Shown here: one piece after another, positions 1-15,688 of the stretch
How the letters are laid out: every line of letters starts with the position of its first letter
How positions within the stretch are numbered: the first letter of the stretch is position 1
Source: Monosiga brevicollis MX1
Taxonomy: Eukaryota > Opisthokonta > Choanoflagellata > Craspedida > Salpingoecidae
Assembly: GCF_000002865.3 (NCBI RefSeq)
Contig: NW_001865041.1
Location: 1,704,979 to 1,747,055 of the forward strand
Length of the DNA: 42,077 nucleotides
Direction: 5' to 3'
The notes under the pieces: model-generated
Told to the model about the DNA's origin: nothing
The model's input: the letters and a program-made list of their open reading frames with translations, nothing else
The model's database searches: none
Position numbers and translations under genes: made by a program

Positions 1-776
1 CTTGGGACACTATGAGTGAATCTGAGACAATTAAATTCATGTTCGCCATCCAGAAAGACATCCAGATCCAGCTGGAGTGCTATATTGATGTCCACATTGG
101 TGTACCATTTGAATCCCAATGGACGTCCACTCTGAGTGTTTCTCATAAGTGGATGCTGTCCCGAGATCTCAGCCAGGTAAAATGCGGGACGTTCCAGATC
201 AGAAACTTCAATGGCATCCAGTCGCCTGAAGACTGGTTTGCCTAAAGGAAATTTATTGGCACTGTTCATGATGCTAGGATAGCAGCTGGTAATGTCGTAT
301 TTCCAAGCCTGTCCCTGCCAGTCCTTCTCGGCATACATGATTCCACCCATGAAGGCTTGCTTGACAACATGTTGTACCTCACAATCGGCATCATGTAAGT
401 GACTGCGGACATTCTTGCTCATGGAATTCATCAGGGCAGCAACTAACATATTATTGATCGAACCCTGGGTAGGATCTAAGAAGCCGTTGGTTTTTAGGGT
501 GAGTTGGTAGAAGCTACGGTATTGCTTGACGACGTCCCGAAAGATGATCCTCTTATCCCCAATGGGTATAAAGGTGATGTTTTCAGAACAGGCTTTCCTC
601 CAGCCCCAAAAGGACTCACGACGTCGCGGTGACCAAACTATTTTTCTCCGATCAGTTTCAAATTCACCAACCAATTGGCGCTTGGTATTTCGGTTGTATT
701 TGTAGAAACGACCGATTTGCATGCGATTATCCGGGTCTTTGGGATGGTCGCGATAAAACACTATCTCCTTGTCCAT
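1..776 (-). CDS. Family B DNA polymerase, partial (runs off left edge)
   Basis: Reading down from an ATG at 774-776 the minus strand stays open for 258 codons to the window edge. The product has the palm motif A of family B polymerases, DITSCYPSIM at residues 161-170, where the first Asp binds catalytic metal. A conserved GG (residues 144-145) lies about 16 residues before it, and after it comes a segment like the W-T-x-V-D/E-L stretch of protein-primed PolBs (near residue 225). Motifs B and C (DTD) would lie off the window. Only about 160 residues precede motif A, too few for the usual 3'-5' exonuclease domain. Either the enzyme lacks proofreading, the domain is encoded elsewhere, or this ATG is internal to a broken gene. 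The start sits directly below an AT-rich promoter-like segment (778-819), like the other genes here, so a true short N-terminus is plausible. Role: viral genome replication. Confidence 0.82.
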   Translation of the reverse strand, partial: MDKEIVFYRDHPKDPDNRMQIGRFYKYNRNTKRQLVGEFETDRRKIVWSPRRRESFWGWRKACSENITFIPIGDKRIIFRDVVKQYRSFYQLTLKTNGFLDPTQGSINNMLVAALMNSMSKNVRSHLHDADCEVQHVVKQAFMGGIMYAEKDWQGQAWKYDITSCYPSIMNSANKFPLGKPVFRRLDAIEVSDLERPAFYLAEISGQHPLMRNTQSGRPLGFKWYTNVDINIALQLDLDVFLDGEHEFNCLRFTHSVP

Positions 777-777
777 G

Positions 778-819
778 ATTTCTATATTAAATAAATCATT
801 TTTTCTTTAATATAGAAAT
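778..819. promoter_or_regulatory. 14-bp perfect inverted repeat upstream of PolB
   Basis: The arms ATTTCTATATTAAA (778-791) and TTTAATATAGAAAT (806-819) are exact reverse complements with a 14-base spacer. The site lies between the end of the upstream minus-strand gene (856) and the PolB start (776). It could form a transcript-ending hairpin for the upstream gene, act as the PolB promoter, or both. The function is inferred from position only. Confidence 0.6.
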
Positions 820-855
820 TTAAAAAAAAAGCATTAAGCACTGGAGTGATGAATT

Positions 856-1230
856 TTAAGCAAGCTTGAAGTATATGCGAGCATCAACTGCCTGAAAATC
901 CTCGGCAAAGTCCTCGCCATCGTCCTCTAAATCATCGTAGTCATCAGGACTCCAAATGTAAATGCTGGGTTCACTGGTGGCAAGGAATTTACCACTCCGC
1001 CACTGTCCGTTATGCCCATGTTTTACCGCCACTGACATCTCGTACTGACCTGGACGATGTTTGTCAACTAGCAGCCTTACCTGCTGGCTGGCGTGCATAA
1101 TATCATTGTAATTGAAACTGGTCTTGTTGGCTGGCATTTTGACCTTAAGTTGTTTGATTGACTCTCCCTTAGAAGCTACTTTGGTATCCGTAGCCTTGTT
1201 CCACACCCTTTGAAAAGCATCTTGATTCAT
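856..1230 (-). CDS. Hypothetical viral protein with acidic C-terminal stretch
   Basis: This 124-residue ORF begins at an ATG (1228-1230) embedded in an inverted repeat and TATAATAATAT-like sequence. The N-terminal half is basic (Lys-rich around residues 15-35). Residues about 94-110 are a dense Asp/Glu run (DDYDDLEDDGEDFAEDF), and the end returns to a hydrophobic strand (ARIYFKL). There is no signal peptide or membrane segment. I do not recognise the family. The basic-to-acidic layout would suit a nucleic-acid or basic-protein binder, but that is a guess. It lies head-to-tail between the zinc-finger gene (1263-1631) and PolB, so it may be co-expressed with replication genes. Confidence 0.7.
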   Translation of the reverse strand: MNQDAFQRVWNKATDTKVASKGESIKQLKVKMPANKTSFNYNDIMHASQQVRLLVDKHRPGQYEMSVAVKHGHNGQWRSGKFLATSEPSIYIWSPDDYDDLEDDGEDFAEDFQAVDARIYFKLA

Positions 1231-1257
1231 TATAATAATATGATTTATAATGAATCA
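1223..1257. promoter_or_regulatory. 13-bp perfect inverted repeat over a start codon
   Basis: TGATTCATTATAA (1223-1235) and TTATAATGAATCA (1245-1257) are exact reverse complements with a 9-base loop. The left arm contains the start codon of the 856-1230 gene and the right arm lies just past the stop of the 1263-1631 gene. The position suits a hairpin that ends or processes the upstream transcript and also contains the promoter of the next gene. Confidence 0.6.
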
Positions 1258-1262
1258 TTTTT

Positions 1263-1631
1263 TTAAGTGCTTTGATTTAATTGTTCCTCTAATGTAGCCA
1301 TTTGTTCTTGAAGACCCGAGACCTGTTCCTGGAGTCCAGAAAGCTGTTCCTGGAGCTCTTCAAACTTGCCTAAGCTTTCTAAAGTTTTAAAGGCTGGTTT
1401 GATGGGTTGTATGTTGACCTTGGTAGTTACTTTTGAATCTCGTCCCGCTAGGCATTTCTTCGACCCCTGGTGGCGCTTCAGGTTCACTTTGCTAATCCAC
1501 TTGCCACAGTGTTCGCAAGCTACTTTCTGCTTCAGACGCTCAAGCACCTGCCTTCTAAATTGTTCATCAGTTCGATATCTTTGTCCATAGTCGGATTTCA
1601 CCTTTTCAATCTCGCCAGCTTTTCTTGGCAT
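1263..1631 (-). CDS. Small C2HC zinc-finger / coiled-coil protein
   Basis: This is a 122-residue protein. Residues 13-37 are a charged helix (YRTDEQFRRQVLERLKQK). A zinc finger follows: C39-x2-C42-x11-H54-x5-C60. The last 35 residues are a coiled coil built from near-identical heptad-like repeats (LQEQ-x-SG-LQEQ). This arrangement is common in small zinc-finger proteins of large and polinton-like viruses. Binding to nucleic acid and self-association through the C-terminus are likely but inferred. The start (1629-1631) directly abuts an AT-rich TTATTATATTAATAA element. Confidence 0.75.
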   Translation of the reverse strand: MPRKAGEIEKVKSDYGQRYRTDEQFRRQVLERLKQKVACEHCGKWISKVNLKRHQGSKKCLAGRDSKVTTKVNIQPIKPAFKTLESLGKFEELQEQLSGLQEQVSGLQEQMATLEEQLNQST

Positions 1632-1692
1632 GTTATTATATTAATAATAAAATCATTTTTAAGTCAAGTCAATCTATGATTGTTAATTATTA

Positions 1693-2767
1693 TCATGTTT
1701 TAATGCCATTTCGTTTTGCTGACTCGGTGATTAATTTGCCAAACACATCCTTATTCAACTTACCATTGACCCGAGATTGTACAGCTTGCACAAAGTCTGA
1801 ATCAACCATCTCTTTAACAGACTCTTCATAGCTGGGCGGAACTTTGGAATGAAAAGAGGGTACGAAAGTAAGCATGTCTGTTAATTGATTGACAATGTCT
1901 GTCTTTGCATCCGCTACCGATTTGCTCACAACTTTCTTCATGGCGTTCTTAAATTGCTGGGCATTGTACTGACTCCTCAGAGTGTTCTTGTAGTCCCCGA
2001 ACTTATTGCGCCACTCAGAACTATATACCTGTTTTTGAGTTAGGATGGCAGCTTGTAAGTCAGCATCACCGTCTTTAATAGCCTGAGCTAGCGCATCTGC
2101 ATCCATACTCATAAGCCCATCCGCCGCGCTCCGAATCTTTTCTTGAGCGCCAGCTTGTAGCCACAGAACAACCCGTTGCAAGTTGCCATTGAATATCTTG
2201 ATGGCATCGGCATCTCCTGAATTTAGGGCGGCATCACGGAAAGCCAAAGCCGTATCCGCACTAGATTTACTCTTTGCTAAAGCCTTTTCCAGAGATGTAT
2301 CATAAATAGCCCGTGCTGCCTTTTCCATGGCGCCGCCTTTATTCAACTCAGATAGAGTTTGCTTCTCGGTTGGTGTCATGGTAGAAAGGCTATTTTTGAG
2401 GCTAGCAGCGGCGGCTTTCGAATATTGGGCTTTGCTGATGTCTTGCAATCGATTCCCTAGATCTTGAATTTCTTTGTCAAGGTCATCTTCCTGTTGCTGG
2501 GTCATTCCTGTACGATCTAGATTGACTTTTTGATTGTACTCTTGATACTTTTGGGCAAATTCTTGATTCTCGTTAGGAGCTGGAGTAGGAGTGATTGGTT
2601 TACCTGGAGCAGGAGCTGGAGTAGGCGTGATTGGTTTACCTGGAGCAGGAGCCGGAGTAGGAGTGATTGGTTTACCTGGAGCAGGAGCAGGTTTGATTGG
2701 TTTACCTGGAGCAGGAGCAGGGGTAATTGGTTTACCTGGAGCAGGAGCAGGGGTAATTGGTTTACCT

Positions 2768-2836
<69 letters not shown>

Positions 2837-3390
2837 ACAGGAGCAGGAGCAGGAGCAGCGAAATCACTCATGACCGTTTTTTTTAAAGGTCTGCTAGGAA
2901 TACCGTAAAGCTTTTTCCAAGCGCTTACCACTTCGGACTTGGTGGTGGGAAATAGGGGTTGACCGGTCACGCGGATGGGAGGCGTAGTCATCATAATGGG
3001 AATGGTATCGCTGGGCAGTTGCCAGGGTTTAATGCTTTGATGAGAATCTCCCTGGAATAAGCCATCCGGAGGGGATTTAATGGTATTATCAAAATTACCC
3101 AGATTCTTCAGACTTCCCGAGTCCTGTCCCGCGTTTTTTTTTGGCGGTTCTGAGTTGGCTTTGATGTGTCGACCGGCTTGTCCCATCTTGGGCAGCCCCG
3201 AAAACTTGACTGATTCCGCTATTTTAGTACGTCTTTGCGTGATACCTTGCTCAGGACGATTGCCTTGCACTTGCTTGAGAGGCTGGGTACTGCCATCACC
3301 GTGCACTTCCCAGTTGAAACTATTTTTAATTTGTTTTGCCTTGCGTTTATCCTTGAGGCGTTGCAGATATGCATGATAATTACCTTCCAT
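1693..3390 (-). CDS. Large structural-type protein with Pro-Ala repeat linker
   Basis: This 565-residue protein is the longest complete viral ORF in the window. Residues 1-175 are basic and low in hydrophobics. Residues about 176-270 are a Pro/Ala linker made of (PA)n followed by six GKPIxPxPAP units, encoded by short tandem DNA repeats at about 2581-2862. The rest (275-565) is predicted mostly helical and charged, with no signal peptide or membrane segment. I do not recognise the fold. The long rigid (PA)n linker between two domains suggests a virion-associated or scaffold protein, as inference only. It is divergent from the gene at 3404 and shares a 13-base gap with it. Confidence 0.75.
2581..2862. 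repeat. Pro-Ala-coding microsatellite and GKPI minisatellite
   Basis: On the plus strand, GGAGCA hexamer-like repeats (about 2768-2855) merge into about six units of a 30-36 base repeat containing TTGGTTTACCTGGAGCAGG. The units sit inside the 565-residue ORF and encode its (PA)n and GKPI repeats. Every frame through this tract is open, which produces spurious ORFs. Such tracts change length by slippage. Confidence 0.85.
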
Positions 3391-3403: not shown

Positions 3404-3667
3404 ATGTCAGAATCTTTACGAAAGCAACAATACCACAACCGCCTTGAGCACCACAAAAAGCAGTTTGAAGACCAAGCGCATAACCAGAAACAAGGTCTAG
3501 GCGCTTGGAATTATAGTTTTGAGGAATACGAGGACGATGCCTGGAGCTACTACCATAAACATACGGCTCTCGTCCTGGCTGCCATAGGTCTTACTGGATT
3601 GGGGCTGGTATATTTCAATCAAAATTATCGAGAGAGATGGGAGAACATAGCATTCAGTTCATGGTAG
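3404..3667 (+). CDS. Small single-pass membrane protein
   Basis: This 87-residue protein has a charged, His- and Gln-rich N-terminal half (residues 1-53) and then one hydrophobic segment (about 54-72, TALVLAAIGLTGLGLVYF). It ends in a short basic/aromatic tail (NYRERW). There is no cleavable signal. The topology suits a virion-membrane or assembly-membrane protein. It is divergent from the 565-residue gene, and its 3' end overlaps the end of the convergent MORN-like gene by 9 bases. The family is not recognised. Confidence 0.65.
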   Translation: MSESLRKQQYHNRLEHHKKQFEDQAHNQKQGLGAWNYSFEEYEDDAWSYYHKHTALVLAAIGLTGLGLVYFNQNYRERWENIAFSSW

Positions 3668-4270
3668 CAACTCAGTATTATCTACCCACTGTTCAAACAG
3701 TTGGGGTGGCAGGGCATACCAACTGCCATTATTTATTTTAAGTATATATTTGCCATTTTCTACCTTCAAATAAATACCGCTGGTAGTATGAACGTAATCA
3801 ATCAAACCACCTCGATATTGAATGAAAAAACATTCCTTTTCGTCTTTCCCTTTTTCTCGCTCAGAAATGGACAGTATAGTTCCGTCCTTGTCATATTTTT
3901 TCTCTGTCACACGATGAAGATACTCCAAATAATAATAATATTTGACACCATCTTTGGAATACTTTTCTTTCCGTTCCTTGTACTTACGAACAAAATCATA
4001 TCTGTTGCCATCTTCATCGTAATCGCAGTCAACCCGCCAAACCCAATTCTTCTCCTTAACACCACCATTGGGGTAATATGAGATAAATGCCGGATCGTCC
4101 TCATTCCTAAGTATCGACCCATTCTGGTACCAAATCTGGCATCCCATACTGCCGTCTTTGTTATAGATAGTAACGGCAGGTTCATCATCGGACCGATGAT
4201 ACTCTCCCTTGTCATTGAGCCATTCAATACGAAGTGTTTTACCATTTCTTGTACTTACACGCTTCGTCAT
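3659..4270 (-). CDS. MORN-variant (NG-W / hR-dePA) repeat protein, copy 1
   Basis: This 203-residue protein is made of about 20-residue repeats of the type dePAvtiYnkdGsmgcqiWYqnGsilR (clear at residues 27-75), followed by more Tyr/Lys-rich repeats. Such YwqK/MORN-variant repeats are often expanded in giant-virus genomes. Their function there is not established; protein or membrane binding is usual for MORN-like folds. A paralog lies at 14117-14725 and shares the order of repeats and the phrases FISY..NG..KEKNW and the C-terminal QWV(D/E)NTE. The start lies next to a TTATATAA element. Confidence 0.75.
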   Translation of the reverse strand: MTKRVSTRNGKTLRIEWLNDKGEYHRSDDEPAVTIYNKDGSMGCQIWYQNGSILRNEDDPAFISYYPNGGVKEKNWVWRVDCDYDEDGNRYDFVRKYKERKEKYSKDGVKYYYYLEYLHRVTEKKYDKDGTILSISEREKGKDEKECFFIQYRGGLIDYVHTTSGIYLKVENGKYILKINNGSWYALPPQLFEQWVDNTELLP

Positions 4271-4707: not shown

Positions 4708-5286
4708 TTAAATCAACAAATCAATGAGGTCGATTAAGAGCTCGAGGGTGATGTATGCCCCCAAACCCAATGCACCGTACAAAATTATTTGTTGGGTGGA
4801 TTGTGGTTGTGAGTAAAACCAGTACTCCAATCTTTGTTCCGCTGTGGCATCATCGGGTAGTTGCTGCCCATTGTTAAGGGCATCCTGCACAGAGGGATCT
4901 GGGGGCGTGACACCCAGAAAGCTGCCTAGTAAACCCCCTACACCGGGAATCTTGGTTGCTAAGGACAACCCAACCCCCACCACGGGTCCCACGACAGGAA
5001 TCTGACTGGAGACCTGCAGGGCGCTTTGCGTGGTACTCCTAACAGAATCATAGGCGTCTTCATATATGCTGCCTGAATGCGCTTTTTTGCTACCGCAGCC
5101 GCCACCATCACATTGCCCAAAGGTGACGGCAGAAACCGCGGCGTCACCTAGGTCTTTATATACGTTACCTGAATGCGCTTTGCTACTGCCACAGCCCCCG
5201 CCATCACATTGTCCTGCCGTCACACCGCTAACGAAATCATCGCCCACCTTTTTCCATGAACTAGCTGAAAATGGATTCCAGACCAT
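4708..5286 (-). CDS. Membrane protein with duplicated CDGGGCG motif
   Basis: This 192-residue protein carries a duplicated block near the N-terminus. Each copy reads about GDD/AA-x-VS-x-V-T-x-GQCDGGGCGS-x-KAHSG (residues about 16-42 and 46-73). A Gly/Val-rich amphipathic or hydrophobic stretch follows (about 90-120), then a C-terminal transmembrane segment (about 168-190, LYGALGLGAYITLELLIDLIDLLI). The paired Cys could form disulfides or bind metal. It is probably virion or membrane associated. It sits directly upstream of another small membrane protein (5321-5551) and may share its transcript. I do not recognise the family. Confidence 0.65.
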   Translation of the reverse strand: MVWNPFSASSWKKVGDDFVSGVTAGQCDGGGCGSSKAHSGNVYKDLGDAAVSAVTFGQCDGGGCGSKKAHSGSIYEDAYDSVRSTTQSALQVSSQIPVVGPVVGVGLSLATKIPGVGGLLGSFLGVTPPDPSVQDALNNGQQLPDDATAEQRLEYWFYSQPQSTQQIILYGALGLGAYITLELLIDLIDLLI

Positions 5287-5567: not shown

Positions 5568-5990
5568 TTAATCTAGTTCATCCTCTAAGGCGGCTCGGGC
5601 AATGGCATGACCGGTTCTGAAGAATGCAGTACCCGTCTGGCTACGCTGCAACAGTTCACGGGCGCGATCAGCAAACATGCCGTTTAGTTTGTTTTGGTAT
5701 TGGTCGGCTAAATTTTGCATGGCTTCCTTGTGAACATCGACCAAGTCACTCCTGATTTGGTTGGCAAAGCCGGTGAGATCGGGCATCGGAGTCGGCGCTG
5801 CTTGAACTTGGTCCTGCAATGTCGGACTAGATTCCGAAGCATCAGGTACACTATCAGCGTCCCCCCCATCACTATCAGGAGGGAGTCCCGTAGCCTCTGT
5901 AGCCACGTCCGCAGTCGTCTCAGGAATCGATTCTTCAATGTCTTCAGGTTTCTCAACGCTTTGTGCAGTCTGAATATTTGTATCATCCAT
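5568..5990 (-). CDS. Acidic hypothetical protein with C-terminal helix
   Basis: This is a 140-residue protein. Residues 1-70 are acidic and Pro/Ser/Thr-rich, likely disordered. Residues about 75-138 form charged helices ending in ALEDELD. It has no membrane segment. It is divergent from the packaging ATPase gene across a 9-base gap, so the two are expected to be expressed together. I do not recognise the family; a scaffold or chaperone-like role would fit but is a guess. Confidence 0.6.
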   Translation of the reverse strand: MDDTNIQTAQSVEKPEDIEESIPETTADVATEATGLPPDSDGGDADSVPDASESSPTLQDQVQAAPTPMPDLTGFANQIRSDLVDVHKEAMQNLADQYQNKLNGMFADRARELLQRSQTGTAFFRTGHAIARAALEDELD

Positions 5991-5999
5991 ATATTATAT
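5991..5999. promoter_or_regulatory. Shared divergent promoter (9-base gap)
   Basis: The whole space between two outward-facing start codons is ATATTATAT, giving the near-palindrome CATATATTATATATG. The same nine bases separate the start codons at 12916 and 12926. This repetition argues for a real bidirectional viral promoter core rather than chance. Confidence 0.7.
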
Positions 6000-6776
6000 A
6001 TGGAGGAAATATCGGAAAGTCAAGCCCGCCAAGAGCTCATGAATGTTCAAAATCTTAACCTGGAACGGGATACCTTTATCACACTGATGTCACAACGCCG
6101 TAGCGGCAAATCAGTGCTTATCGCCAGCCTGATTCATTATTTCATGGAAGCGGCACCGCCAGACCAGCGATGTCATTTTGCCTATCTTTTTAGTGCCACT
6201 GCCGCCTTAAATCAGACCACCAACCACAGTTACAGTTTTTTTGATCGTAAAGCCATTTTTAATCCCAAACCAGAAATTATGAATAACTTTATATCCAACC
6301 TGATCCGGTCACAGACGCAAACAAAAATGAAGTATCATGTCCTGCTGGTTTTTGATGACATTGTGGTCACCAAGCGTTACGAAGTCCTGGAATGGTTAGC
6401 TAGTGCTGGTCGGCATTATAGTATTACCGTGATCCTTAGTAGTCAGATCAGTAACAACGCCGTCAGCCCGACTATTCGTAGCAATGTGGATTATATTTTC
6501 TGGCGTAAGTTAGGTAAAGCCGCGATCCAAAATAATATTTTCCCGTTTATGAGCATCTCCGAATTTGAGGATTATAAACAGCTGCATGAGTTTACCCTGG
6601 CAAACACCCAGGACTACCAGTTTGTTTTTTACAACAACTGCACTGATGCAACTGAAGACAAGGTCAAGGTAGTCAAGGCTTATCCCATCCCTGAGCATTA
6701 CCGCTATACGATCAGAGCTCCCAGTCAGCAGCAAAGGCGGCAACGACGTCATGGTAATATAGCTATTAGGTGGTAA
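6000..6776 (+). CDS. A32/FtsK-HerA-type genome packaging ATPase
   Basis: This 258-residue protein starts at the ATG at 6000. The frame is open further upstream, but that stretch belongs to the divergent gene. It has a Walker A loop SQRRSGKS at residues 31-38 and Walker B VLLVFDD at 114-120. A strand SITVILSSQ (141-149) follows, where A32-type ATPases carry a sensor Gln. R160 in PTIRSNVDYIF matches the usual arginine-finger position. The short single-domain form agrees with packaging ATPases of polinton-like viruses, virophages and nucleocytoplasmic viruses. It pumps viral DNA into the capsid. The Walker A lacks the usual first Gly (S instead), as seen in other divergent members. The C-terminus is Gln/Arg-rich. 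Confidence 0.85.
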   Translation: MEEISESQARQELMNVQNLNLERDTFITLMSQRRSGKSVLIASLIHYFMEAAPPDQRCHFAYLFSATAALNQTTNHSYSFFDRKAIFNPKPEIMNNFISNLIRSQTQTKMKYHVLLVFDDIVVTKRYEVLEWLASAGRHYSITVILSSQISNNAVSPTIRSNVDYIFWRKLGKAAIQNNIFPFMSISEFEDYKQLHEFTLANTQDYQFVFYNNCTDATEDKVKVVKAYPIPEHYRYTIRAPSQQQRRQRRHGNIAIRW

Positions 6777-8132: not shown

Positions 8133-8684
8133 ATGCCAGGACTATTTTTGTCAGATATCTACTACAACTTCATGATGCTTACAGGCGATCCTTTAGGAAT
8201 GATCAGCACTGAACAGCATGCCCTTGGTGAACCCTATGCTCTCAACTTCATAGACGGCACAGAGGTTTGGACACACCAAGCAGATCCTGAAACCGCCTTA
8301 ACTGAACACGGTGAATTATGGGACAAGGACAAGTACCCCCAGATTGCCCCTTCAATAAGTGCGTACGAGGCTGGCGAGCATATTTGGGCTGCGGAATTCA
8401 CCCAGGAACAATACGAGAAAAGTATGCAGGAGGGCGCGCTGCTTGGCTTGTCCTTTTTACCCTGGAGCACCCGTGTACTAGCCGGTAGTGGCAACAGCAA
8501 GGGACGTTATTTTGGACGTGCCGATTACCATTGGAGAAACAGTGGTGACCTCACCTATGCCCTTGCCTTCAATGAATGGAGCGGTCAGCTCTTGACCATG
8601 AAACTGCAAACTATGGCAATTCTGACAGCGGTTTCAGTAGGAGGCTACTACGGAGGCAAATATCTTTACAATAAATATGGTTAA
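8133..8684 (+). CDS. Hypothetical protein with C-terminal membrane helix
   Basis: This is a 183-residue protein. The N-terminal 150 residues are soluble, rich in aromatic and acidic residues. The C-terminus (about 157-178, KLQTMAILTAVSVGGYYGGKYL) is a Gly-rich hydrophobic helix with a short basic end, giving a tail-anchored layout. It could be a virion surface or membrane protein. It ends in convergence with the capsid gene across a hairpin (8694-8728). No known family was recognised. Confidence 0.65.
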   Translation: MPGLFLSDIYYNFMMLTGDPLGMISTEQHALGEPYALNFIDGTEVWTHQADPETALTEHGELWDKDKYPQIAPSISAYEAGEHIWAAEFTQEQYEKSMQEGALLGLSFLPWSTRVLAGSGNSKGRYFGRADYHWRNSGDLTYALAFNEWSGQLLTMKLQTMAILTAVSVGGYYGGKYLYNKYG

Positions 8685-8745: not shown

Positions 8746-9975
8746 TTATTGAACAATGAGTTGTCCGCCTTGGACGCGGCAGTGCTTATAGCACATGGCT
8801 ACAACGGTGCAGTTATAGTTTCCAGTCGCCTGGGCAGTAATACGTAGTTTCATGTTACGAACCAGAGGCTGGGCACCGGACATAACACCTTCGCGGTAAT
8901 CGGCTTGGGGGTCGGTGGCTGGGCAGTAGACCAGATAGAGACCGTGGCTTTGGCTGGCGGTGTTATTAAAGTTATCGGGATAGTTGATAGCCAGCAGCTC
9001 AGGAGCCTTCCATTGGATGCCGTTGGTCAGGTTGTGCCCGGATTCGTCCTCCAACCAGATGCGGTCAATAACATCACTCAACATGGTATCACGGTTGGCA
9101 CCAGCTAGGTTGGTGTTGCGGACAAAAACCCACATGTGGGAGCACAGGTCATCCGGGCTAAAGTTGTTGAGCACCCAGGTGGTGGTAGACCCGTCGGTCA
9201 AGCTCAGGGTCTTTTCCTCGTGCTTGGGCTCTAGGAAACGCCAGTCCAGGTTGGGTTTGGAGATCTGCTGCAGGGCGCTGTCATCACCCCGGATTTCCCG
9301 AAGCATGAATTTAAACTCCTTAAGGGCTATGTTACCTGTATTTAGCACGTTGCTAGCCACTTGGGAATAAAACCGGAGCGTAACTTGCTCGTCACACGTA
9401 GCCAAGGGAATGCCGCATTGAGTCAGCAATGAGGTGATGGGGATGCGAATAGTGGGACTGTCCGACAAGGCGCCGAAAACAGCGGTGGAATCCACGGCAT
9501 AGTTAGCAGCGTCATACACCTTAGCCTCTTGATGGCGTTCGTGTTCCCAGGGATCTTTGTAAATTACGGCATCCATCCACTGCTCCAAATCAGTAACGGT
9601 TTGCTTAATTTCATTGCCGACCCGGATGTCGATACGCGAAAACAAATTGCTGGGCATGCTATTAAAGTTGTCACCAGCCATGTCATTGTTGGTCAAAACC
9701 AGATGAAGATCGGTCTGGTTAACGTAGTGGATGTGCTTGGGCAGGTCCACATCGATATACTGGTTGACACTGTTGAAAAAGGTAGCTGGTGGAGCTACCT
9801 TGGGTTGTAATTCGTGAATAACGTGCCTTAAGCTGCCGGCAGTGACGGCATGTTCAGGTCTCTTGAAGCGATACAAACCATTAAAAACGGGGGTCACATT
9901 TTTCTCGAGATCCACTAACGACTTAAGGTGGGGAAAGTGAAGACGACTGTTTCCTTGTCTTTCTGAGACACTCAT
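8746..9975 (-). CDS. Candidate major capsid protein (double jelly-roll)
   Basis: This 409-residue protein has no membrane segment and is rich in beta-forming and Asn/Asp/Thr residues. The N-terminal half has FFNSVNQYIDVDLPKHIHYV (about 63-82) followed by lvltNNDmag and SRIDIRVGNEI, the kind of strand pattern that begins a jelly-roll. A second similar block starts near residue 230 (WRFLEPKHEEKTLSLTDGSTT), and the end is a beta-rich KLRITAQATGNYNCTVVAMCYK. The size suits a compact double jelly-roll capsid protein of the polinton-like/Yaravirus range. I assign it by size, composition, duplication and company with the packaging ATPase, not by a strict motif. Confidence 0.6.
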   Translation of the reverse strand: MSVSERQGNSRLHFPHLKSLVDLEKNVTPVFNGLYRFKRPEHAVTAGSLRHVIHELQPKVAPPATFFNSVNQYIDVDLPKHIHYVNQTDLHLVLTNNDMAGDNFNSMPSNLFSRIDIRVGNEIKQTVTDLEQWMDAVIYKDPWEHERHQEAKVYDAANYAVDSTAVFGALSDSPTIRIPITSLLTQCGIPLATCDEQVTLRFYSQVASNVLNTGNIALKEFKFMLREIRGDDSALQQISKPNLDWRFLEPKHEEKTLSLTDGSTTTWVLNNFSPDDLCSHMWVFVRNTNLAGANRDTMLSDVIDRIWLEDESGHNLTNGIQWKAPELLAINYPDNFNNTASQSHGLYLVYCPATDPQADYREGVMSGAQPLVRNMKLRITAQATGNYNCTVVAMCYKHCRVQGGQLIVQ

Positions 9976-10042: not shown

Positions 10043-10492
10043 TTAAGCCTCAAATCGTTTAGCCACGCGATTGCGGCGACGCTTGTCAAGAAGGAAATTG
10101 GTTACCTTAGAACTTAATTCCCAGATGGATTCGGTTTCGAACTCGGCAAACATTTGCTTTAAATCAGCTTCATTAAGCTTATTGATTTTGACAATGACAG
10201 CGCGACGGGCTTGTTCAAACTCACTGCGTTTGGGCAGTAATTCAGTGATTTTTACGGTTTTCTTTTCAACCGTGCCATCTGCCTTTATTTCTGTCATCTC
10301 AACTGAAGTGGGGTCACCGGGATCTCTAACGCGGGCTTCTGTTTCCAAGGTTTCTAGATACATTTTGTAAGCTTTCATCTCGTCGTATTCGGTATAAGCC
10401 GCCGCAATATCCTTAGCCCTTCGATCCATTTGGAGATCGGCATTATCATAGCGATTGTCAAAGTCCTTGTTGAGTTTTGGATCACTTGCCAT
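10043..10492 (-). CDS. Hypothetical helical protein
   Basis: This 149-residue protein is strongly charged and mainly helical, with long stretches of alternating Lys/Arg and Asp/Glu. The C-terminus is basic (LLDKRRRNRVAKRFEA), which could bind nucleic acid. It lies immediately upstream of the capsid gene on the same strand. The start adjoins ATACTATTATG. No family was recognised. Confidence 0.65.
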   Translation of the reverse strand: MASDPKLNKDFDNRYDNADLQMDRRAKDIAAAYTEYDEMKAYKMYLETLETEARVRDPGDPTSVEMTEIKADGTVEKKTVKITELLPKRSEFEQARRAVIVKINKLNEADLKQMFAEFETESIWELSSKVTNFLLDKRRRNRVAKRFEA

Positions 10493-10535: not shown

Positions 10536-10994
10536 TTATTCCATGAGCTTCTCTATAGGCAATACTGTCAGCTTAGCTGCCAAGTTGTAACCTGCACCCT
10601 CTAAAAACCCATTTTCAAAAGTATACGTGTGAACCGGGGGGACTGTGCGGACTCGACCGGTGGGGCGTAGGGCAGTGGGTTGCACCTGCTGGAAACCCTG
10701 TTCCACAAAACTAATGGCATTAAGACTGTCAGTGTCGATAAATTGATGCTTGATAGCACCGTTAATTGCGCCGTGAAACAGGGGTTCTATCCAGGTAGCC
10801 AAGGGCGTGGTATAGGGCACTAGAAACTCGACCGTTACCACAGCTGACACTAACTTAGCAAACATGTTGGTGGCGACGTCAATTAACACATGTGGATTAT
10901 CGGGTAGGTATTCGTCGTATAAAACATCTTTACCTAGGACATAGAGACCCACCAGGGCTGGTTGTACCAGATAGTCAATCATGAATGTGCTCAT
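10536..10994 (-). CDS. Hypothetical protein with hydrophobic N-terminal half
   Basis: This is a 152-residue protein. Residues about 4-25 (FMIDYLVQPALVGLYVLGKDVL) and 43-63 are hydrophobic and could be membrane segments. The C-terminal half is soluble (PTGRVRTVPPVHTYTFENG). It is divergent from the 11007 gene across 12 bases. Unknown family; a virion membrane role is possible. Confidence 0.6.
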   Translation of the reverse strand: MSTFMIDYLVQPALVGLYVLGKDVLYDEYLPDNPHVLIDVATNMFAKLVSAVVTVEFLVPYTTPLATWIEPLFHGAINGAIKHQFIDTDSLNAISFVEQGFQQVQPTALRPTGRVRTVPPVHTYTFENGFLEGAGYNLAAKLTVLPIEKLME

Positions 10995-11006: not shown

Positions 11007-11285
11007 ATGTTCAGGGCTTTAAAAAATCTTTTCAAATGCCGATGGGAAGGTAACCAAGTAACTATCTCTAGTAGCTGCTGTCGTAGTCAACGCGTCACCT
11101 TGACTTTTCACAATGTGGACGAAACAACGGCTGAAATTGTGCGTGCTTTGATCGCCACTCAGCGGGGAACATTGGCTCTAACTCAATCCAATGGTCATCT
11201 AGTTCTGACCGACGAGCACCCACTGGCAATTCCGGTCGAACCGCCCAAACCCACATCAGATAACGAGAGTCCGTCTCAGCAATAA
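11007..11285 (+). CDS. Small hypothetical protein overlapping a convergent gene
   Basis: This 92-residue product starts at the ATG at 11007, directly below the shared AT-rich promoter; the frame is open upstream but that lies in the divergent gene. It has a basic N-terminus (FRALKNLFKCRW) and a Pro/Ser-rich C-terminal tail. It overlaps the 3' 190 bases of the VLTF3-like gene on the other strand. Such a long overlap is unusual here, so either this gene or the C-terminal extension of the other may not be expressed as drawn. Confidence 0.45.
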   Translation: MFRALKNLFKCRWEGNQVTISSSCCRSQRVTLTFHNVDETTAEIVRALIATQRGTLALTQSNGHLVLTDEHPLAIPVEPPKPTSDNESPSQQ

Positions 11286-11700
11286 TTTTAGCCAAACGAT
11301 ACAAAGTATATTTGTTACCAAAAAGATTACGCTGCCTGCCCGCTGGCTTGCCCCTTTTCATGAAACGGGTTCTGAAATTTTGAATACACTTGGCGTAGGC
11401 ATCCATAAAACGAATATAAGCTTGTCGGATAGGCTGGTACTCGGGTAGCTCAGGAAATCGGCATTGCCAACTCTCTAAATGTTTAACAAAATTCTTAACC
11501 GAGGAATATTGATTGTTGTAACACTGCATATCTACAGGGAATTCTGTCACCATTTCTTGATAGGGAAAATAATCCCGGCATTCATGGCAATAGATCCATC
11601 CATTAATGTCGTCAATGTCGCTACATTTATCGTGAAGACATTCCACTATCGGTGCGGGTTTCCGGAGCAAGGTGGATAAGCGTTCATAGTGAATTTCCAT
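11095..11700 (-). CDS. VLTF3-like late transcription factor
   Basis: This is a 201-residue protein. A zinc-binding cluster near the N-terminus reads C21-x4-C26-x11-C38-x2-C41 (CLHDKCSDIDDINGWIYCHEC). A helical region follows with KNFVKHLESWQCRFPELP and a basic RQRNLFGNKYTLYRLAKII at about residues 121-140. This order and spacing resemble the VLTF3 (A2L-like) family of nucleocytoplasmic and some polinton-like viruses, which activates late gene transcription. Sequence agreement is moderate and I could not align it. The last 60 residues overlap the 11007 gene and look less conserved. The start sits by an ATAATAAC element. Confidence 0.55.
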   Translation of the reverse strand: MEIHYERLSTLLRKPAPIVECLHDKCSDIDDINGWIYCHECRDYFPYQEMVTEFPVDMQCYNNQYSSVKNFVKHLESWQCRFPELPEYQPIRQAYIRFMDAYAKCIQNFRTRFMKRGKPAGRQRNLFGNKYTLYRLAKIIAETDSRYLMWVWAVRPELPVGARRSELDDHWIELEPMFPAEWRSKHAQFQPLFRPHCEKSR

Positions 11701-11734: not shown

Positions 11735-12100
11735 CTAATCGCACTCAAAGCGGAGCACCATAAAGCTATCGCTTTGCAAAGCCAGACCCCCGATCCCCTC
11801 AACTTCCACATTTAATCGTTCTAAAGGCTCATTGGGAGCACCGTTGATAATGACTTGCTGGGGAGGATGCGTGGAATCATCGTCCGTGACGAAAAATGAG
11901 ACCGCCTCTTGAGTTGGATCGCCATCACCGGTCAGGACACAAGCCCTGGTAATCTTGTCGATACATACCTTCACTGCTACGGCACTGGATTCCGCAGTGG
12001 ATTTCAGGTTGGTGCTCTCCAGATAACACCTGTTCCATATTAGCGAACCCGGCAATTCCGCCGTAAAACTGGAACTTGAAACGTGTAGGAATACGATCAT
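11735..12100 (-). CDS. Small beta-rich protein, possible minor virion protein
   Basis: This 121-residue protein is rich in Val, Ser, Thr and Asp with many short alternating strands, and ends in a hydrophobic strand MVLRFECD. It has no membrane segment. The composition suits a small beta-sandwich, perhaps a minor capsid or fibre-like component, but no motif proves it. It lies 3 bases from the neighbouring minus-strand gene (12104), so the two are probably co-transcribed or have overlapping control elements. Confidence 0.6.
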   Translation of the reverse strand: MIVFLHVSSSSFTAELPGSLIWNRCYLESTNLKSTAESSAVAVKVCIDKITRACVLTGDGDPTQEAVSFFVTDDDSTHPPQQVIINGAPNEPLERLNVEVEGIGGLALQSDSFMVLRFECD

Positions 12101-12103
12101 ATA

Positions 12104-12568
12104 TTAATTACCTTTATTATTATTCTTGCTGAAATAATAGTTGGCAGCATAACCTGTCACGGCACCCACCAAGGCTTCGACACCGTTGTTTTGATTAAAT
12201 TGTTGGAGGTTGCCGCTCATGCCAGTTAGCAAATAATAACCCCCAGCAAAGGCAATATTATCGACATGCTCTGAACCCACGGCTAGACCTACGTTGATAC
12301 CAAAGATTTGAGCCAGGGCAGCGTAAACCGCCTTGAGCCCAAGCTTGGCTACTTCGTCGGTGCCATGGTAATAGGCTGTAGCGCAAGTAGCCAGGACAGT
12401 CAGTGCTAGGCTGTAGCCGATATTGGGTCGTGTTAGGATATCCTCTTGATCCTTAAACACCTGCTCAATATCACTCTGTAATTTGCCAGCATCCGCGATC
12501 AAGTTTTGCTTCATAACTAGCATGGAACCTGAGTTTTGACCTACGACACTCGTTTTGTGTGCTTTCAT
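12104..12568 (-). CDS. Multi-pass membrane protein
   Basis: This is a 154-residue protein. The soluble N-terminus (1-48) is followed by hydrophobic Ala/Gly/Leu-rich segments at about 50-66, 78-98 and 105-145, giving two to three membrane helices. It ends in an Asn/Lys-rich tail. A possible virion-membrane component. No family recognised. It sits in a tight minus-strand run with the genes at 11735 and 12584. Confidence 0.6.
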   Translation of the reverse strand: MKAHKTSVVGQNSGSMLVMKQNLIADAGKLQSDIEQVFKDQEDILTRPNIGYSLALTVLATCATAYYHGTDEVAKLGLKAVYAALAQIFGINVGLAVGSEHVDNIAFAGGYYLLTGMSGNLQQFNQNNGVEALVGAVTGYAANYYFSKNNNKGN

Positions 12569-12583
12569 ATACCTTAAGGAACT

Positions 12584-12916
12584 TTACTTATTTTCCATAG
12601 CCATGATCTTTGCTAAATGTTCCTCATACGTCAATTGTTTTGGCTCTTCGTCACTAGGAGCTTCGCCTACCAAATACTCAATGAAAAATGCTAAATAGCG
12701 CTTGAACTTGCCCTTGTGTTCATCATCAAAATCCAGTTTCTTTTGCATTTCGCCCACTACCATATCCAAATTGTGGCGCTGTGGGATTAAAAGCACATAA
12801 GCAAGACCCTGCATCTTCAACCAGCTTATGTTTTCATATTCCTTAATAGTCTCGCCATTCCGAGACACCTCTTTTACAAACCTCTTAAAATTGTCCAGTT
12901 TTTCATTGACGTCCAT
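12584..12916 (-). CDS. Hypothetical helical protein
   Basis: This 110-residue protein is charged and helical, with a hydrophobic patch (WLKMQGLAYVLLIP, about 31-44) and an acidic C-terminus (GEAPSDEEPKQLTYEEHL). No signal peptide. It is divergent from the 387-residue HTH gene across nine bases identical to those in front of the ATPase, so it is likely expressed in the same phase. Function unknown. Confidence 0.65.
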   Translation of the reverse strand: MDVNEKLDNFKRFVKEVSRNGETIKEYENISWLKMQGLAYVLLIPQRHNLDMVVGEMQKKLDFDDEHKGKFKRYLAFFIEYLVGEAPSDEEPKQLTYEEHLAKIMAMENK

Positions 12917-12925: not shown

Positions 12926-14089
12926 ATGCCTAAAAACTCTCAAGAATATGCTCAGGCTCTCCAGGACTACCAATCGGGAAAACCCCTAAAAGACATACTT
13001 GCCGAAAATCCCGGAATCAAAAGATCCACATTTTATACCTACAAAAAACAAAATCTAAACCCGGAATCGGTGGAGGAACCCCAGCCAAAACCAATTTCTA
13101 AGCAAACCGTCACTGTGACCAAGAAACAGCCCGAGCAAGTAACTCAGGAAATTCCCATCAATTACTCCCAACCGGAAAATGTCGGAACTGCTCCGGCAAT
13201 CCAGGACGACTTTTTGGCGGGGGAGAGACCCGAACTGTTCATGGACGTGGGAGCCGATGCTCGAAAGGAAAGTATGTTAGGATCCTTAATGTCAAAATCC
13301 AGCGGAGGAAAAGCTGCCATGGTGGACGAATTATTTGGCGACATAGATCTGTTTCAGCCCAAGACCTTAGCACAACCACCCGTATCCAAACCACAACAAG
13401 ACCCAGTGGTCAAAGGCAGCACCATCTTGGGACACGGCAAGTCTTGGTGGACTAAAATGCCCAAACTCAAGAAGGAAAAGACACCGGAACAAGAACGCGA
13501 TGAACAGCAAATGGTCACCGTACAAAAAATTAGGCTGTACTTAATGCATTTCCCTCAACTGGAACAACTCCATATTATTCCTAAAAAGAAAACCAAAGGT
13601 CATGAGGGCGAACCCGACACTGAAAAGTGGCTTGTTAGTCTTTACACCAAAAACCAGACTGATCTGGATAAAATGCTAGACTTTATACAATTCCATGTCC
13701 GCAACAGCATCAATGAACAAACCAGTATGAAGTTAGCCAATAACGTGGTTACCACCGGCAGTAAAGTTATCGAGCACATCCTCGTTGCCTTGGGTCTCAA
13801 AGTACAAGGGCTAACCAAAACCCTGATGGAGGATGAGGACGTCAAGCGCTGCATCAAAGAGATTATCATCGAAAACGGCGTCAACACATTAAACTATGGA
13901 CCAAAAGCCGATCTGGGTCTCAAACTGGTCATGAAGATTGTGCAAACCGATAGCCAAAATCGCATAGAGGAAACCGTCAAGCAAAAGGCACTGGAAAAGG
14001 CACTGGAAATACAAAAGCAAAAGGCACAAGAAAAGGAGAAACCTAAGCCAGTGCCCCAGGAGCTAGCTGACAAGTACGATGACTTATAA
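12926..14089 (+). CDS. HTH-containing viral protein with long helical C-terminus
   Basis: This is a 387-residue protein. Residues about 17-40 (SGKPLKDILAENPGIKRSTFYTYKK) read as a psq/homeodomain-like helix-turn-helix. A Pro/Gln-rich disordered linker (50-175) follows, then a folded helical domain (about 190-340) and a Lys/Gln/Glu-rich coiled-coil tail (350-375) ending in ADKYDDL. It probably binds DNA or is a virion core protein; I do not recognise the central domain. The last 14 codons and following A-run are duplicated exactly at 15351-15398, near the element's right edge. Confidence 0.65.
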   Translation: MPKNSQEYAQALQDYQSGKPLKDILAENPGIKRSTFYTYKKQNLNPESVEEPQPKPISKQTVTVTKKQPEQVTQEIPINYSQPENVGTAPAIQDDFLAGERPELFMDVGADARKESMLGSLMSKSSGGKAAMVDELFGDIDLFQPKTLAQPPVSKPQQDPVVKGSTILGHGKSWWTKMPKLKKEKTPEQERDEQQMVTVQKIRLYLMHFPQLEQLHIIPKKKTKGHEGEPDTEKWLVSLYTKNQTDLDKMLDFIQFHVRNSINEQTSMKLANNVVTTGSKVIEHILVALGLKVQGLTKTLMEDEDVKRCIKEIIIENGVNTLNYGPKADLGLKLVMKIVQTDSQNRIEETVKQKALEKALEIQKQKAQEKEKPKPVPQELADKYDDL

Positions 14090-14092
14090 AAA
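14045..14092 (+). repeat. 48-bp direct repeat, copy A (inside the HTH gene)
   Basis: This 48-base stretch covers the last 14 codons, the TAA stop and following A residues of the HTH gene. An identical copy lies at 15351-15398. The two copies bracket the genes at 14117 and 14743. Confidence 0.9.
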
Positions 14093-14116
14093 AAAATGTT
14101 AATAATAAATATAGTA

Positions 14117-14725
14117 ATGAGTGGACAAATGACAGAACGTGAAATCAAAAAAGATGGCAAGGTCGAACGTATTGAATTGTTAGGTAGAGGGGGTAGGTTA
14201 CATAGTTTTGCTGATAAACCTGCGCTAACCGTTTATAATAGTAACGGTAGCGTTGATTGTCTTATTTGGTATCAGGATGGAACCATTGCGAGGCACAGCA
14301 AGGAACCTAATTTTATTTCTTATCATAAGAATGGTAGTGTGAAAGAGAAAAACTGGAATGCATATGATAAGGAAAATGAGGAATACAGTGACAATATAAA
14401 CATAGAGCGATACAATAAAAATGGAGTCCTGACTTATTGCAAGAAATACTCTAATAAAGATTCATTTGAAGAGACATCATGGGACAGTAATGGTGTGATA
14501 CAGTCATTTTGCAGGGATGATTATGGAGAATTTGAAGTCTCATATAAAGGGGGTAAAATCAATTATATCTCAGGATATCTCGATGAGTACTATTTTTCTA
14601 GGGAAGGAAAGATATATTTCAATGTGGACGATGTGCGGTCCAGTCGTGTGTATGCAGACTTTGAATTGCCCCTTGAATATCTATCACAAGAGTGGGTAGA
14701 GAATACTGAACGTGAAGAAAATTGA
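14117..14725 (+). CDS. MORN-variant repeat protein, copy 2
   Basis: A paralog of the 3659-4270 protein: 202 residues from the ATG at 14117, chosen because the AT-rich AATAATAAATATAGTA element lies right before it. Repeats of the type kPAltvYnsnGsvdclIWYqdGtiaR are clear at about residues 32-58, then NFISYHKNGSVKEKNW and further variants, ending LSQEWVENTE. The shared C-terminus and repeat order show duplication followed by divergence. Repeats like these are common in giant-virus accessory proteins; role unknown. Confidence 0.7.
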   Translation: MSGQMTEREIKKDGKVERIELLGRGGRLHSFADKPALTVYNSNGSVDCLIWYQDGTIARHSKEPNFISYHKNGSVKEKNWNAYDKENEEYSDNINIERYNKNGVLTYCKKYSNKDSFEETSWDSNGVIQSFCRDDYGEFEVSYKGGKINYISGYLDEYYFSREGKIYFNVDDVRSSRVYADFELPLEYLSQEWVENTEREEN

Positions 14726-14742
14726 TCATATTAAATCATCAA

Positions 14743-15213
14743 ATGGATGAAGTAGAGTTATTGAATCGTGTACTGGGATATTTGGAGGATATCTCCCAAT
14801 CACATATGTCACCTGATGTTGAGCTGTTATCTATTAAGGAACAGCTGAGGGATCGGTTTGACGCATTGGCAAGAAGTTTAGTATCAAGGTTTCCACTAAA
14901 TACTGATGTAGATATGATAGATCGTATATTGAATCATCTGGAGGAGCATATCCAATCACCTGAATTCAATGGTGATATTATGGATTTTATGGAAGTAACG
15001 GAAGTGCTCAACAATAGGTTTGATCGAATGAGCGACCAATGGATGCAAGTCGAAGAAGATATTGCCAATGATTCCGGAGTAGAGGATGACATTATTTGCA
15101 TGGCATGTGGTGGTGATGTGGATCTGGATTATGTGTTACAGGCGAAAGAGGACTGGGATGCATCTGGTAATATCCCTGCGGATTACGAGGCATTGTGCCA
15201 AACATGTTCTTAA
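14743..15213 (+). CDS. Duplicated helical domain with C-terminal zinc ribbon-like motif
   Basis: This 156-residue product uses the ATG at 14743. Two related helical units are visible: LLNRVLGYLEDISQS...LRDRFDAL (residues about 5-42) and MIDRILNHLEEHIQS...LNNRFDRM (about 60-100). The C-terminus has C-x2-C (CMACGG) and a second C-x2-C (CQTC) about 29 residues on, a possible zinc ribbon. It may be a protein-protein or DNA-binding accessory factor. It is the last viral gene before the repeat-rich edge. Confidence 0.6.
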   Translation: MDEVELLNRVLGYLEDISQSHMSPDVELLSIKEQLRDRFDALARSLVSRFPLNTDVDMIDRILNHLEEHIQSPEFNGDIMDFMEVTEVLNNRFDRMSDQWMQVEEDIANDSGVEDDIICMACGGDVDLDYVLQAKEDWDASGNIPADYEALCQTCS

Positions 15214-15254
15214 TGCCCCAGACAGTTACCAATTCAGATGTATTTCACTTTGTT

Positions 15255-15347
15255 ACCAAGCTTCATTTGCCACGTTATAATTTTTACCAAACTTCATTTG
15301 TCACTTTGTAATTTTTACCAAACTTCATTTGTCACTTTGTAACTTTT
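15255..15347 (+). repeat. Three 31-bp tandem units at viral edge
   Basis: Three head-to-tail units of 31 bases (15255-15285, 15286-15316, 15317-15347), each with ACCAA[A/G]CTTCATTTG then [T/C]CAC[T/G]TT. Copies 2 and 3 are nearly identical. The next ACCAAG leads straight into the 48-bp copy. They lie outside any gene. Confidence 0.85.
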
Positions 15348-15350
15348 ACC

Positions 15351-15398
15351 AAGCCAGTGCCCCAGGAGCTAGCTGACAAGTACGATGACTTATAAAAA
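15351..15398 (+). repeat. 48-bp direct repeat, copy B
   Basis: This is an exact copy of 14045-14092, out of any gene context and fused to the 31-bp repeat array. It shows a recombination or template-switch event during replication, or the scar of an element end. Confidence 0.9.
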
Positions 15399-15453
15399 CA
15401 AAGAGTCATCACCCCCTTATTTTAAGTACAAATAAGAGAGTGCGGACATTGAT

Positions 15454-15573
15454 AGGGTAAAAAATTGGGTCGAGGTTTGAACTCATTGCGGACACGTTTT
15501 ATAATCGATTATAAGGGTAAAAAAATGGGTCGAGGTTTGAACTTATTGCGGACTCGTTTTATAATCGATTATA
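15454..15573 (+). repeat. Two 60-bp tandem units
   Basis: Units 15454-15513 and 15514-15573 match at about 57 of 60 positions; both contain GGGTCGAGGTTTGAAC and ATAATCGATTATAA. The second unit runs into the palindrome at 15547-15586. Confidence 0.85.
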
Positions 15574-15586
15574 AAACAAGTCCGCA
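15547..15586. repeat. 40-nt near-perfect palindrome at viral/host edge
   Basis: The sequence is its own reverse complement around the centre of ATCGAT (15566/15567), except for one mismatched pair (15555 C opposite 15578 A). Arms begin TGCGGACT and end AGTCCGCA. A palindrome of this length beside direct repeats suggests a replication origin, resolved hairpin end, or integration site of the viral element. The role is inferred. Confidence 0.8.
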
Positions 15587-15688
15587 CTATTGCAGTTCGG
15601 ACTCATGTTCGGACTTCGCTGAGCTCAGCATGACACTAGCTTCTTGAGGCGGTCTGAGCCAGTGGCATTTTTTTCTTTCCCCCCCGCC
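15587..15688. other. Putative virus-to-host boundary
   Basis: Between the palindrome and the first spliced gene the composition changes from AT-rich viral to GC-richer host. GTTCGGACT occurs twice (about 15595-15616). No clear target-site duplication can be assigned because the left end of the element is outside the window. Confidence 0.5.

What the first reader, a model, noticed from the sequence alone, without database searches (positions are those of the whole stretch)
1..15620. Small DNA virus embedded beside a protist nuclear genome
An intron-free, AT-richer block with PolB, packaging ATPase, candidate capsid and VLTF3-like genes abuts spliced host genes with no assembly gap. The mixture of PolB, ATPase, VLTF3 and many small unknown membrane proteins does not match a named group that I can pin down. 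It may be a new polinton-like or small nucleocytoplasmic lineage, possibly endogenous.
Basis: partly seen in the sequence, partly recalled or inferred. Interest (0 to 1): 0.9.

Follow-up and report, generated by a model that had tools for sequence, protein, structure and literature searches.

The report
Small virus inside choanoflagellate genome
A chromosome of the choanoflagellate Monosiga brevicollis, a single-celled relative of animals, carries part of a small DNA virus that seems to have its own capsid family and giant-virus-like gene switches; it may already be listed by name in a public database.

Summary
The block is real. Window 1 to about 15,590 lies in a 2.07-Mb contig of a 39.5-Mb genome, which a 100% protein match identifies as Monosiga brevicollis. 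It holds 24 kept ORFs at 43.6% GC against 55.0% in the host half. PolB and an A32-type packaging ATPase are confirmed. The 409-aa capsid candidate belongs to a conserved environmental family, but its fold is untested. VLTF3 is not supported. The 12.2 kb left of the window reads N, so integrase, left end and target-site duplication cannot be judged.

New here: 13 of 24 starts have TAT directly before ATG, five divergent gene pairs share a 9-13 bp AT-only or nearly AT-only promoter, and PolB and two neighbours carry AAAAATGATT 18-23 nt upstream. This resembles late and early promoters of large nucleocytoplasmic viruses. Best reading: an endogenous small varidnavirus, probably using a giant virus's transcription machinery.

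It differs from a polinton-type element on contig C49. NCBI taxonomy lists 'Monosiga MELD virus 1' and '2', so it may already be catalogued; I could not compare sequences.

The parts
3..776 (-). PolB, first 258 residues (runs off the window's left edge); motif A YDITSCYPS at residue 160
   Evidence: PF03175 E 5.9e-8, over the cut-off; 31% over 104 aa to the C49 PolB piece; motif position (motif name recalled); no PDB match
794..803 (-). early-type promoter motif AAAAATGATT, 18 nt upstream of the PolB ATG
   Evidence: 5 exact copies in the window, all in the viral part; 0.22 expected; spacing
856..1230 (-). 124-aa ORF, early-type motif at 1253-1262
   Evidence: no Pfam hit over a cut-off
1263..1631 (-). 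122-aa zinc-finger-like/coiled-coil ORF, early-type motif at 1651-1660
   Evidence: 16 Pfam hits, none over its cut-off; best T3SS_TC E 7.6e-5, which I take for a coiled-coil match
1693..3390 (-). 565-aa ORF with PAPAPGKPIT repeats
   Evidence: no Pfam hit over a cut-off, best PHROG E 0.018
3404..3667 (+). 87-aa ORF with a hydrophobic stretch (by eye)
   Evidence: no Pfam hit
3659..4270 (-). 203-aa ORF, paralogue of 14096-14725
   Evidence: 35% identity, E 9e-32; no Pfam hit
4708..5286 (-). 192-aa ORF
   Evidence: no Pfam hit
5568..5990 (-). 140-aa ORF
   Evidence: weak hits only
5988..6002 (.). bidirectional late-type promoter CATATATTATATATG, 9 bp between two divergent start codons (others near 3388, 7816, 10992, 12914)
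6000..6776 (+). A32/FtsK-HerA-type DNA packaging ATPase, 258 aa
   Evidence: PF04665 E 4.4e-6; 34 hits, up to 79% identity over nearly full length; best solved structure by profile: STIV B204 ATPase, E 0.0096
7042..7464 (-). 140-aa ORF
   Evidence: weak hit only
7519..7818 (-). 99-aa C2H2-like zinc-finger ORF
   Evidence: PF00096 E 0.045, below cut-off
7828..8109 (+). 93-aa ORF
   Evidence: no Pfam hit
8133..8684 (+). 183-aa ORF with a C-terminal hydrophobic stretch (by eye)
   Evidence: no Pfam hit
8746..9975 (-). candidate major capsid protein, 409 aa
   Evidence: 14 environmental relatives, 40-69% identity; UniRef name of the host gene model begins 'Capsid protein'; Capsid_N E 0.12 only, and unrelated CBM49 (0.01) and PAS_10 (0.064) score better; no PDB match better than E 1
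10043..10492 (-). 149-aa ORF
   Evidence: weak hit only
10536..10994 (-). 152-aa ORF
   Evidence: no Pfam hit
11007..11285 (+). 92-aa ORF overlapping the next on the other strand
   Evidence: no Pfam hit
11095..11700 (-).
   Evidence: no Pfam hit at E 10, none in NCBIfam at E 1, best PHROG E 0.017 of unknown function
11735..12100 (-). 121-aa ORF, possible minor capsid (guess from size and make-up)
   Evidence: no family hit
12104..12568 (-). 154-aa ORF with hydrophobic stretches (by eye)
   Evidence: weak hits only
12584..12916 (-). 110-aa ORF
   Evidence: no Pfam hit
12926..14089 (+). 387-aa ORF
   Evidence: no hit over a cut-off
14096..14725 (+). 209-aa ORF, paralogue of 3659-4270
   Evidence: no Pfam hit
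14743..15213 (+). 156-aa ORF
   Evidence: weak hits only
15253..15352 (.). 3.2 x 31-bp tandem repeat
15351..15402 (+). second copy (98%) of the 3' end of the 387-aa ORF (14045-14096)
15454..15574 (.). 2 x 60-bp tandem repeat
15546..15587 (.). near-perfect palindrome at the right edge of the element
   Evidence: single-stranded DNA fold of 15480-15600 z -5.65

Best explanation
It is the right-hand 15.6 kb of a small dsDNA virus (varidnavirus) integrated just upstream of what looks like a host gene in Monosiga brevicollis. Shown: PolB of the organellar/viral type, an A32-like packaging ATPase, a conserved capsid-sized protein, ORFs without internal stops, and two over-represented start-proximal motifs. 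Inferred: PolB and its two neighbours are switched on early through AAAAATGATT; ATPase, capsid candidate and most other genes are switched on late from TATATG-type promoters that overlap the start codon, giving leaderless mRNAs. That layout is like that of nucleocytoplasmic large DNA viruses, so I infer transcription by an RNA polymerase of that type. None is seen in the readable part, so most likely a co-infecting giant virus supplies it: a virophage-like life.
For: PolB and ATPase families. The ATPase family has 34 hits; in a quick 90-row tree the window sits in a 32-row set with SH-aLRT 100 on a stem of 1.04. TAT|ATG at 13 of 24 kept ORF starts vs 8 of 580 other ATGs, p 2e-15, and p 7e-12 against intergenic composition. 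TATWATATATG with up to one mismatch 13 times vs 0.39 expected. AAAAATGATT 5 exact copies vs 0.22 expected. Late promoters that overlap the transcription start are described for vaccinia (TAAAT followed by G or A) and ASFV (TATATA at -1 to +5) in PMC5294985 (passages). In the C49 element 0 of 9 ORFs checked have TAT|ATG.
Against: No transcription start is mapped; the motifs are statistics from one element. AAAAATGATT is not enriched when one mismatch is allowed (8 vs 4.2, reached by 8 of 100 shuffles). I know of no giant virus isolated from M. brevicollis. About 12.2 kb reads N and could hide RNA polymerase subunits. No fold was predicted, and no profile match over a cut-off ties the 409-aa protein to a known capsid. 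Mriyaviruses are small, have NCLDV-type genes and are thought to replicate in the nucleus (PMC11253617, passages), so such a virus need not need a helper.
Confidence: 0.55

Rival explanations
1. An ordinary polinton/eupolintovirus (one of the 'Monosiga MELD viruses') that replicates in the nucleus with host RNA polymerase II, with diverged capsid and ATPase.
For: PolB piece aligns with the C49 PolB piece; NCBI files Monosiga MELD virus 1 and 2 under Eupolintoviridae; the C49 670-aa ORF has no second copy better than E 0.2 in this genome, so one of the two names may be this element.
Against: A1 and A2 match the C49 capsid-sized ORFs and ATPase poorly (weak test, single sequences); start-codon motif and GC differ; no protease or integrase recognised in the 24 readable ORFs, though Pfam also missed the C49 ORF that I take for a protease.
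Confidence: 0.25
2. A separate small relative of Nucleocytoviricota (mriyavirus-like), integrated by chance.
For: ATPase profile matches a set inferred to be NCLDV-like (lopsided test); NCLDV-like start-proximal motifs.
Against: Mriyaviruses lack DNA polymerase (PMC11253617, passages) and this has PolB; no VLTF3 match and no capsid-model match over a cut-off; genome searches with PF04947, PF16903, PF04451 were silent but had no positive control.
Confidence: 0.15
3. Not integrated: a viral contig wrongly joined to host sequence in the assembly.
For: The left side is a long N run, so only one joint is visible; the capsid candidate and ATPase are found once; no target-site duplication can be checked.
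Against: The NCBI gene model P0001 places the 409-aa protein on a 2.08-Mb scaffold (perhaps the same assembly); no N at the right joint.
Confidence: 0.05

Closest known systems
Polintons / Eupolintoviridae (C49 element of the same genome as yardstick)
   Same: PolB of the PF03175 family, PF04665-type ATPase, integrated
   Different: No detectable match of the capsid candidate; ATPase match weak (E 0.0036); different start-codon context and GC; no protease or lipase gene recognised in the readable part
Mavirus-type virophages
   Same: Small, integrated, PolB with little room for an exonuclease domain (mavirus: PMC11071308, section 11 read); promoters resembling giant-virus ones (mavirus side recalled)
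   Different: No match to a capsid family over a cut-off; the ORF also leaves little room for TP and vOTU domains (159 residues before the YDITSCYPS motif)
Mriyaviricetes
   Same: Small genome (PMC11253617: 35-45 kb), A32-type ATPase
   Different: PolB present; VLTF3 and NCLDV capsid models not matched
Monosiga MELD virus 1 and 2 (NCBI taxids 2713456, 2713457)
   Same: Host genus; probably one of the two
   Different: Sequences not available here, so identity could not be tested

Membership tests
Polinton/Eupolintoviridae | PolB of the protein-primed family | tested here: met
   PF03175 E 5.9e-8, alignment to the C49 PolB piece; protein priming itself not shown, and only the first 258 residues are readable
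Polinton/Eupolintoviridae | capsid homologous to polinton capsid | tested here: inconclusive
   hhalign probability 0.4 and 0.2 against two C49 capsid-sized ORFs; single-sequence targets, weak test
Polinton/Eupolintoviridae | adenain-type protease and RVE integrase | tested here: inconclusive
   none recognised in the 24 readable ORFs, but about 12.2 kb reads N
Polinton/Eupolintoviridae | terminal inverted repeats and target-site duplication | not testable with these tools
   left end reads N
Virophages | virophage capsid | tested here: inconclusive
   no Pfam family over a cut-off for the window protein and best E 0.01 among 15 members of A1; no virophage record was held for comparison
Virophages | dependence on a giant virus | not testable with these tools
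   inferred from promoter-like motifs only
Mriyaviricetes | lacks DNA polymerase | tested here: not met
   PolB present
Mriyaviricetes / Nucleocytoviricota | VLTF3 | tested here: inconclusive
   no match in readable ORFs; genome search without positive control; 12.2 kb unread
Nucleocytoviricota | A32-type packaging ATPase | tested here: met
   shared with other bamfordviruses, so not diagnostic
Nucleocytoviricota | NCLDV capsid domains PF16903/PF04451 | tested here: inconclusive
   Capsid_N E 0.12 in 1 of 15 members, below cut-off; genome searches silent without a positive control

The most novel reading that the evidence does not exclude
A lineage of small DNA viruses without a described parent group, combining a stripped-down polinton-like PolB, an NCLDV-type ATPase, its own capsid family and start-codon-overlapping bidirectional late promoters, integrated in a close relative of animals and living as a virophage-like guest of an unknown choanoflagellate giant virus.
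Probability: 0.3. Interest if true: 0.75.

Novelty: new variant of a known kind. Interest (0 to 1): 0.5.

Why it matters
M. brevicollis is a model for the origin of animals and for antiviral immunity such as STING (PMC12911909, passage). A published ViralRecall screen reported no reliable hit in this genome (PMC11244446, passages; that the tool is tuned to giant viruses is recalled). Two different virus-like elements in it give a concrete starting point for asking which viruses choanoflagellates meet. The start-codon motifs make a testable prediction about whose RNA polymerase reads the genes.

Tried and rejected
Searched for relatives in IMG/VR viral contigs with the ATPase, A1 and A2, and in GTDB genomes with A2 and A1: no confirmed relative. 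Three queries from the wider ATPase set, P0083, P0113 and alignment A3, also found nothing in viral contigs, so that absence says little. Phage records: nothing useful. VLTF3 reading: dropped as unsupported. Defence role of the two paralogues and of two neighbouring ORFs: no PADLOC hit. No tRNA in 1-17,000, no Rfam match in 1-16,000. A weak second PF03175 hit on C55 (E 0.04) was looked at only by ORF list. One search did not list the C49 PolB piece (itself only E 7e-4 and below cut-off), so these genome searches miss things and copy counts are lower bounds.

Literature: ten searches, of which I saw listings, several of them capped, and passages or a section of nine papers. None of what I saw describes this element, apart from the mention of 'Monosiga MELD virus 2'. 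Bellas 2023 (PMC10120064) has no choanoflagellate term in its main text; supplements could not be opened.

Dropped rows: P0001 (fused gene model) left out of A1; P0029, P0035, P0039, P0047, P0049 left out of A2; nine rows under 205 aa left out of the tree (90 of 99 used). Promoter counts use 24 of the 34 ORFs that one search lists in the block; the ten left out overlap kept ones or are antisense. Nine of these ten were checked and 1 had TAT|ATG; the tenth, at the window's left edge, has no start codon.
Full report
Place. The window is C54:1704979-1747055 of a 39.5-Mb, 57-contig genome. The best protein hit names the host: P0001, MONBRDRAFT_23653 of Monosiga brevicollis MX1, a 611-residue gene model that runs together sequence of three of the ORFs here and covers 91% of the 409-aa protein at 100% identity. 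Left of the window, C54:1,692,743-1,704,978 reads N; whether this is an assembly gap or a withheld stretch I cannot tell. Beyond it lie host-like sequence, TPR-repeat ORFs and a DDE_3 transposase ORF.

Gene content. One search lists 34 ORFs of 80 aa or more in the block; I kept 24, which cover 90% of 1-15,213. All 23 that lie wholly in the window read from ATG to a single stop. PolB and ATPase are firm. The ATPase has 34 hits with E down to 5e-133. The 409-aa protein has 15 hits: P0001 and 14 others of 382-419 aa. No Pfam family reaches its cut-off for the window protein, and a profile search of the PDB gives nothing better than E 1. I think it is a double-jelly-roll capsid because of its size, its family-wide conservation, its probable linkage to the ATPase on two contigs (same lengths, 11,036 and 5,874), a weak Capsid_N match (E 0.12; two unrelated families score better) and a UniRef name. 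A resemblance of its conserved stretches to NCLDV capsid signatures is recalled, not tested.

PolB. The ORF begins at 776, with the early-type motif 18 nt upstream, and motif A lies at residue 160. Pfam aligns residues 81-191 to profile positions 153-265. There is thus little room for the TP, vOTU and exonuclease domains that polinton PolBs carry in front of the palm (PMC11071308, section 11 read). [quoted passage not shown] For the window this is inference from ORF length; the rest of the gene is outside the readable sequence.

Promoters. 13 of 24 starts have TAT directly before ATG against 8 of 580 other ATGs in the block (p 2e-15); given intergenic composition alone the chance is 7e-12. Five divergent gene pairs are separated by 9, 9, 9, 12 and 13 bp, and the gap is almost wholly the AT motif. 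TATWATATATG with up to one mismatch occurs 13 times in the window, against 0.39 expected, and all 13 lie in the viral part. AAAAATGATT occurs exactly five times, all in the viral part: three times 18-23 nt upstream of PolB and the two ORFs next to it, and twice as an inverted pair at 6793-6815. With one mismatch allowed the count is 8 against 4.2 expected, which 8 of 100 shuffles reach, so the signal rests on the exact form. Eleven of the 24 ORFs lack TAT|ATG; three of these are the ones with AAAAATGATT. The two classes recall the early and late split of NCLDVs; the passages I saw in PMC5294985 describe TAAAT followed by G or A at the initiation site of vaccinia late genes, TATATA at -1 to +5 in ASFV and AAAATTGA for early mimivirus genes.

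Right end. Before the ORF at 15,689 the element closes with a 31-bp tandem repeat, a 52-bp copy of the 3' end of the 387-aa gene, two 60-bp repeats and a near-perfect palindrome. Palindromes of this kind (arms of 19, at most 2 mismatches, loop up to 4) occur at two places in the window, here and, with 2 mismatches, at 778-819 beside the PolB promoter, and in 0 of 60 simulated sequences. The strand at the right end folds with z -5.65. It may be a terminus or a recombination site; nothing here decides. DNA searches find no other copy of the right end in the genome.

Second element. Searching the genome for PF04665 found C49:880970. Around it lie a PolB piece (PF03175 E 7e-4, below cut-off), a lipase-like ORF (E 1e-3, below cut-off), a 190-aa ORF that looks to me like an adenain-type protease (recalled, no Pfam hit), 407- and 670-aa ORFs without Pfam hits, and two tandem ATPases (E 5e-8 over and 1.6e-4 just below the cut-off). 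I read this as a polinton; the capsid roles are guesses from size. Its 670-aa ORF has no second copy better than E 0.2, GC is 47-58%, and 0 of 9 ORFs checked show TAT|ATG (for the second ATPase I took an inner ATG). Its first ATPase aligns with A2 only weakly (probability 9, E 0.0036), whereas A2 against A3 gives E 8e-23. The comparison is lopsided twice over: A3 is a 14-sequence profile and the C49 ATPase one sequence, and the members of A3 were picked from the hits of A2. That A3 is NCLDV-like is inferred from two members on contigs of 396 and 315 kb.

Tree. In the quick 90-row ATPase tree (of 99 rows; nine short ones dropped) the window lies in a 32-row set with SH-aLRT 100 and a stem of 1.04. 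No hit shows a virus name, so the tree shows a distinct family, not its parent group.

What is known. A published ViralRecall screen of M. brevicollis found no reliable hit (PMC11244446, passages). A Monosiga protein appears in a TVpol tree of 2013 (PMC3671162, passage); I take that for another gene but did not compare it. A virome paper mentions 'Monosiga MELD virus 2' (PMC10134843, passage), and NCBI taxonomy lists numbers 1 and 2 under Eupolintoviridae. MELD is the term of the adintovirus paper (Virus Evol. 2021, veaa055; seen only as a reference; not held, not read). Since I find two places with an A32-type ATPase in the readable genome, the simplest guess is that these are the two names. 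That guess lowers the novelty; it does not change the anatomy.

Verdict. A real fragment of an integrated-looking virus with an unusual mixture of parts. Interest is moderate because it may already be catalogued and because its capsid, left end and helper dependence are untested.

Noticed in passing
L014 1-10000, L012, L015 1-2100 (C49 about 871,001-883,100): A second virus-like element, read as a polinton, in the same genome: PolB piece, lipase-like ORF, 407- and 670-aa capsid-sized ORFs and two tandem A32-type ATPases, followed by an N run.
   Followed up: partly
L012 1480-2166 and 2236-3021: The C49 ATPase gene is duplicated in tandem, with the same GATATCTCTTCACTCATCGAAAAAATG stretch before both copies.
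   Followed up: no
P0039 (559-base metagenome contig): A metagenome protein of 151 aa identical to the window's ATPase at 122 of 123 aligned residues, so the host or a near-identical virus is present in a sampled environment.
   Followed up: no
window 6793-6815: Inverted pair of the early-type motif in a convergent intergenic region; could be a terminator, a promoter or a remnant of a gene.
   Followed up: no
L003 565-1209, 2523-3593: Two similar transposase-like ORFs left of the N run; DDE_3 matched in the second, the first was not scanned.
   Followed up: no
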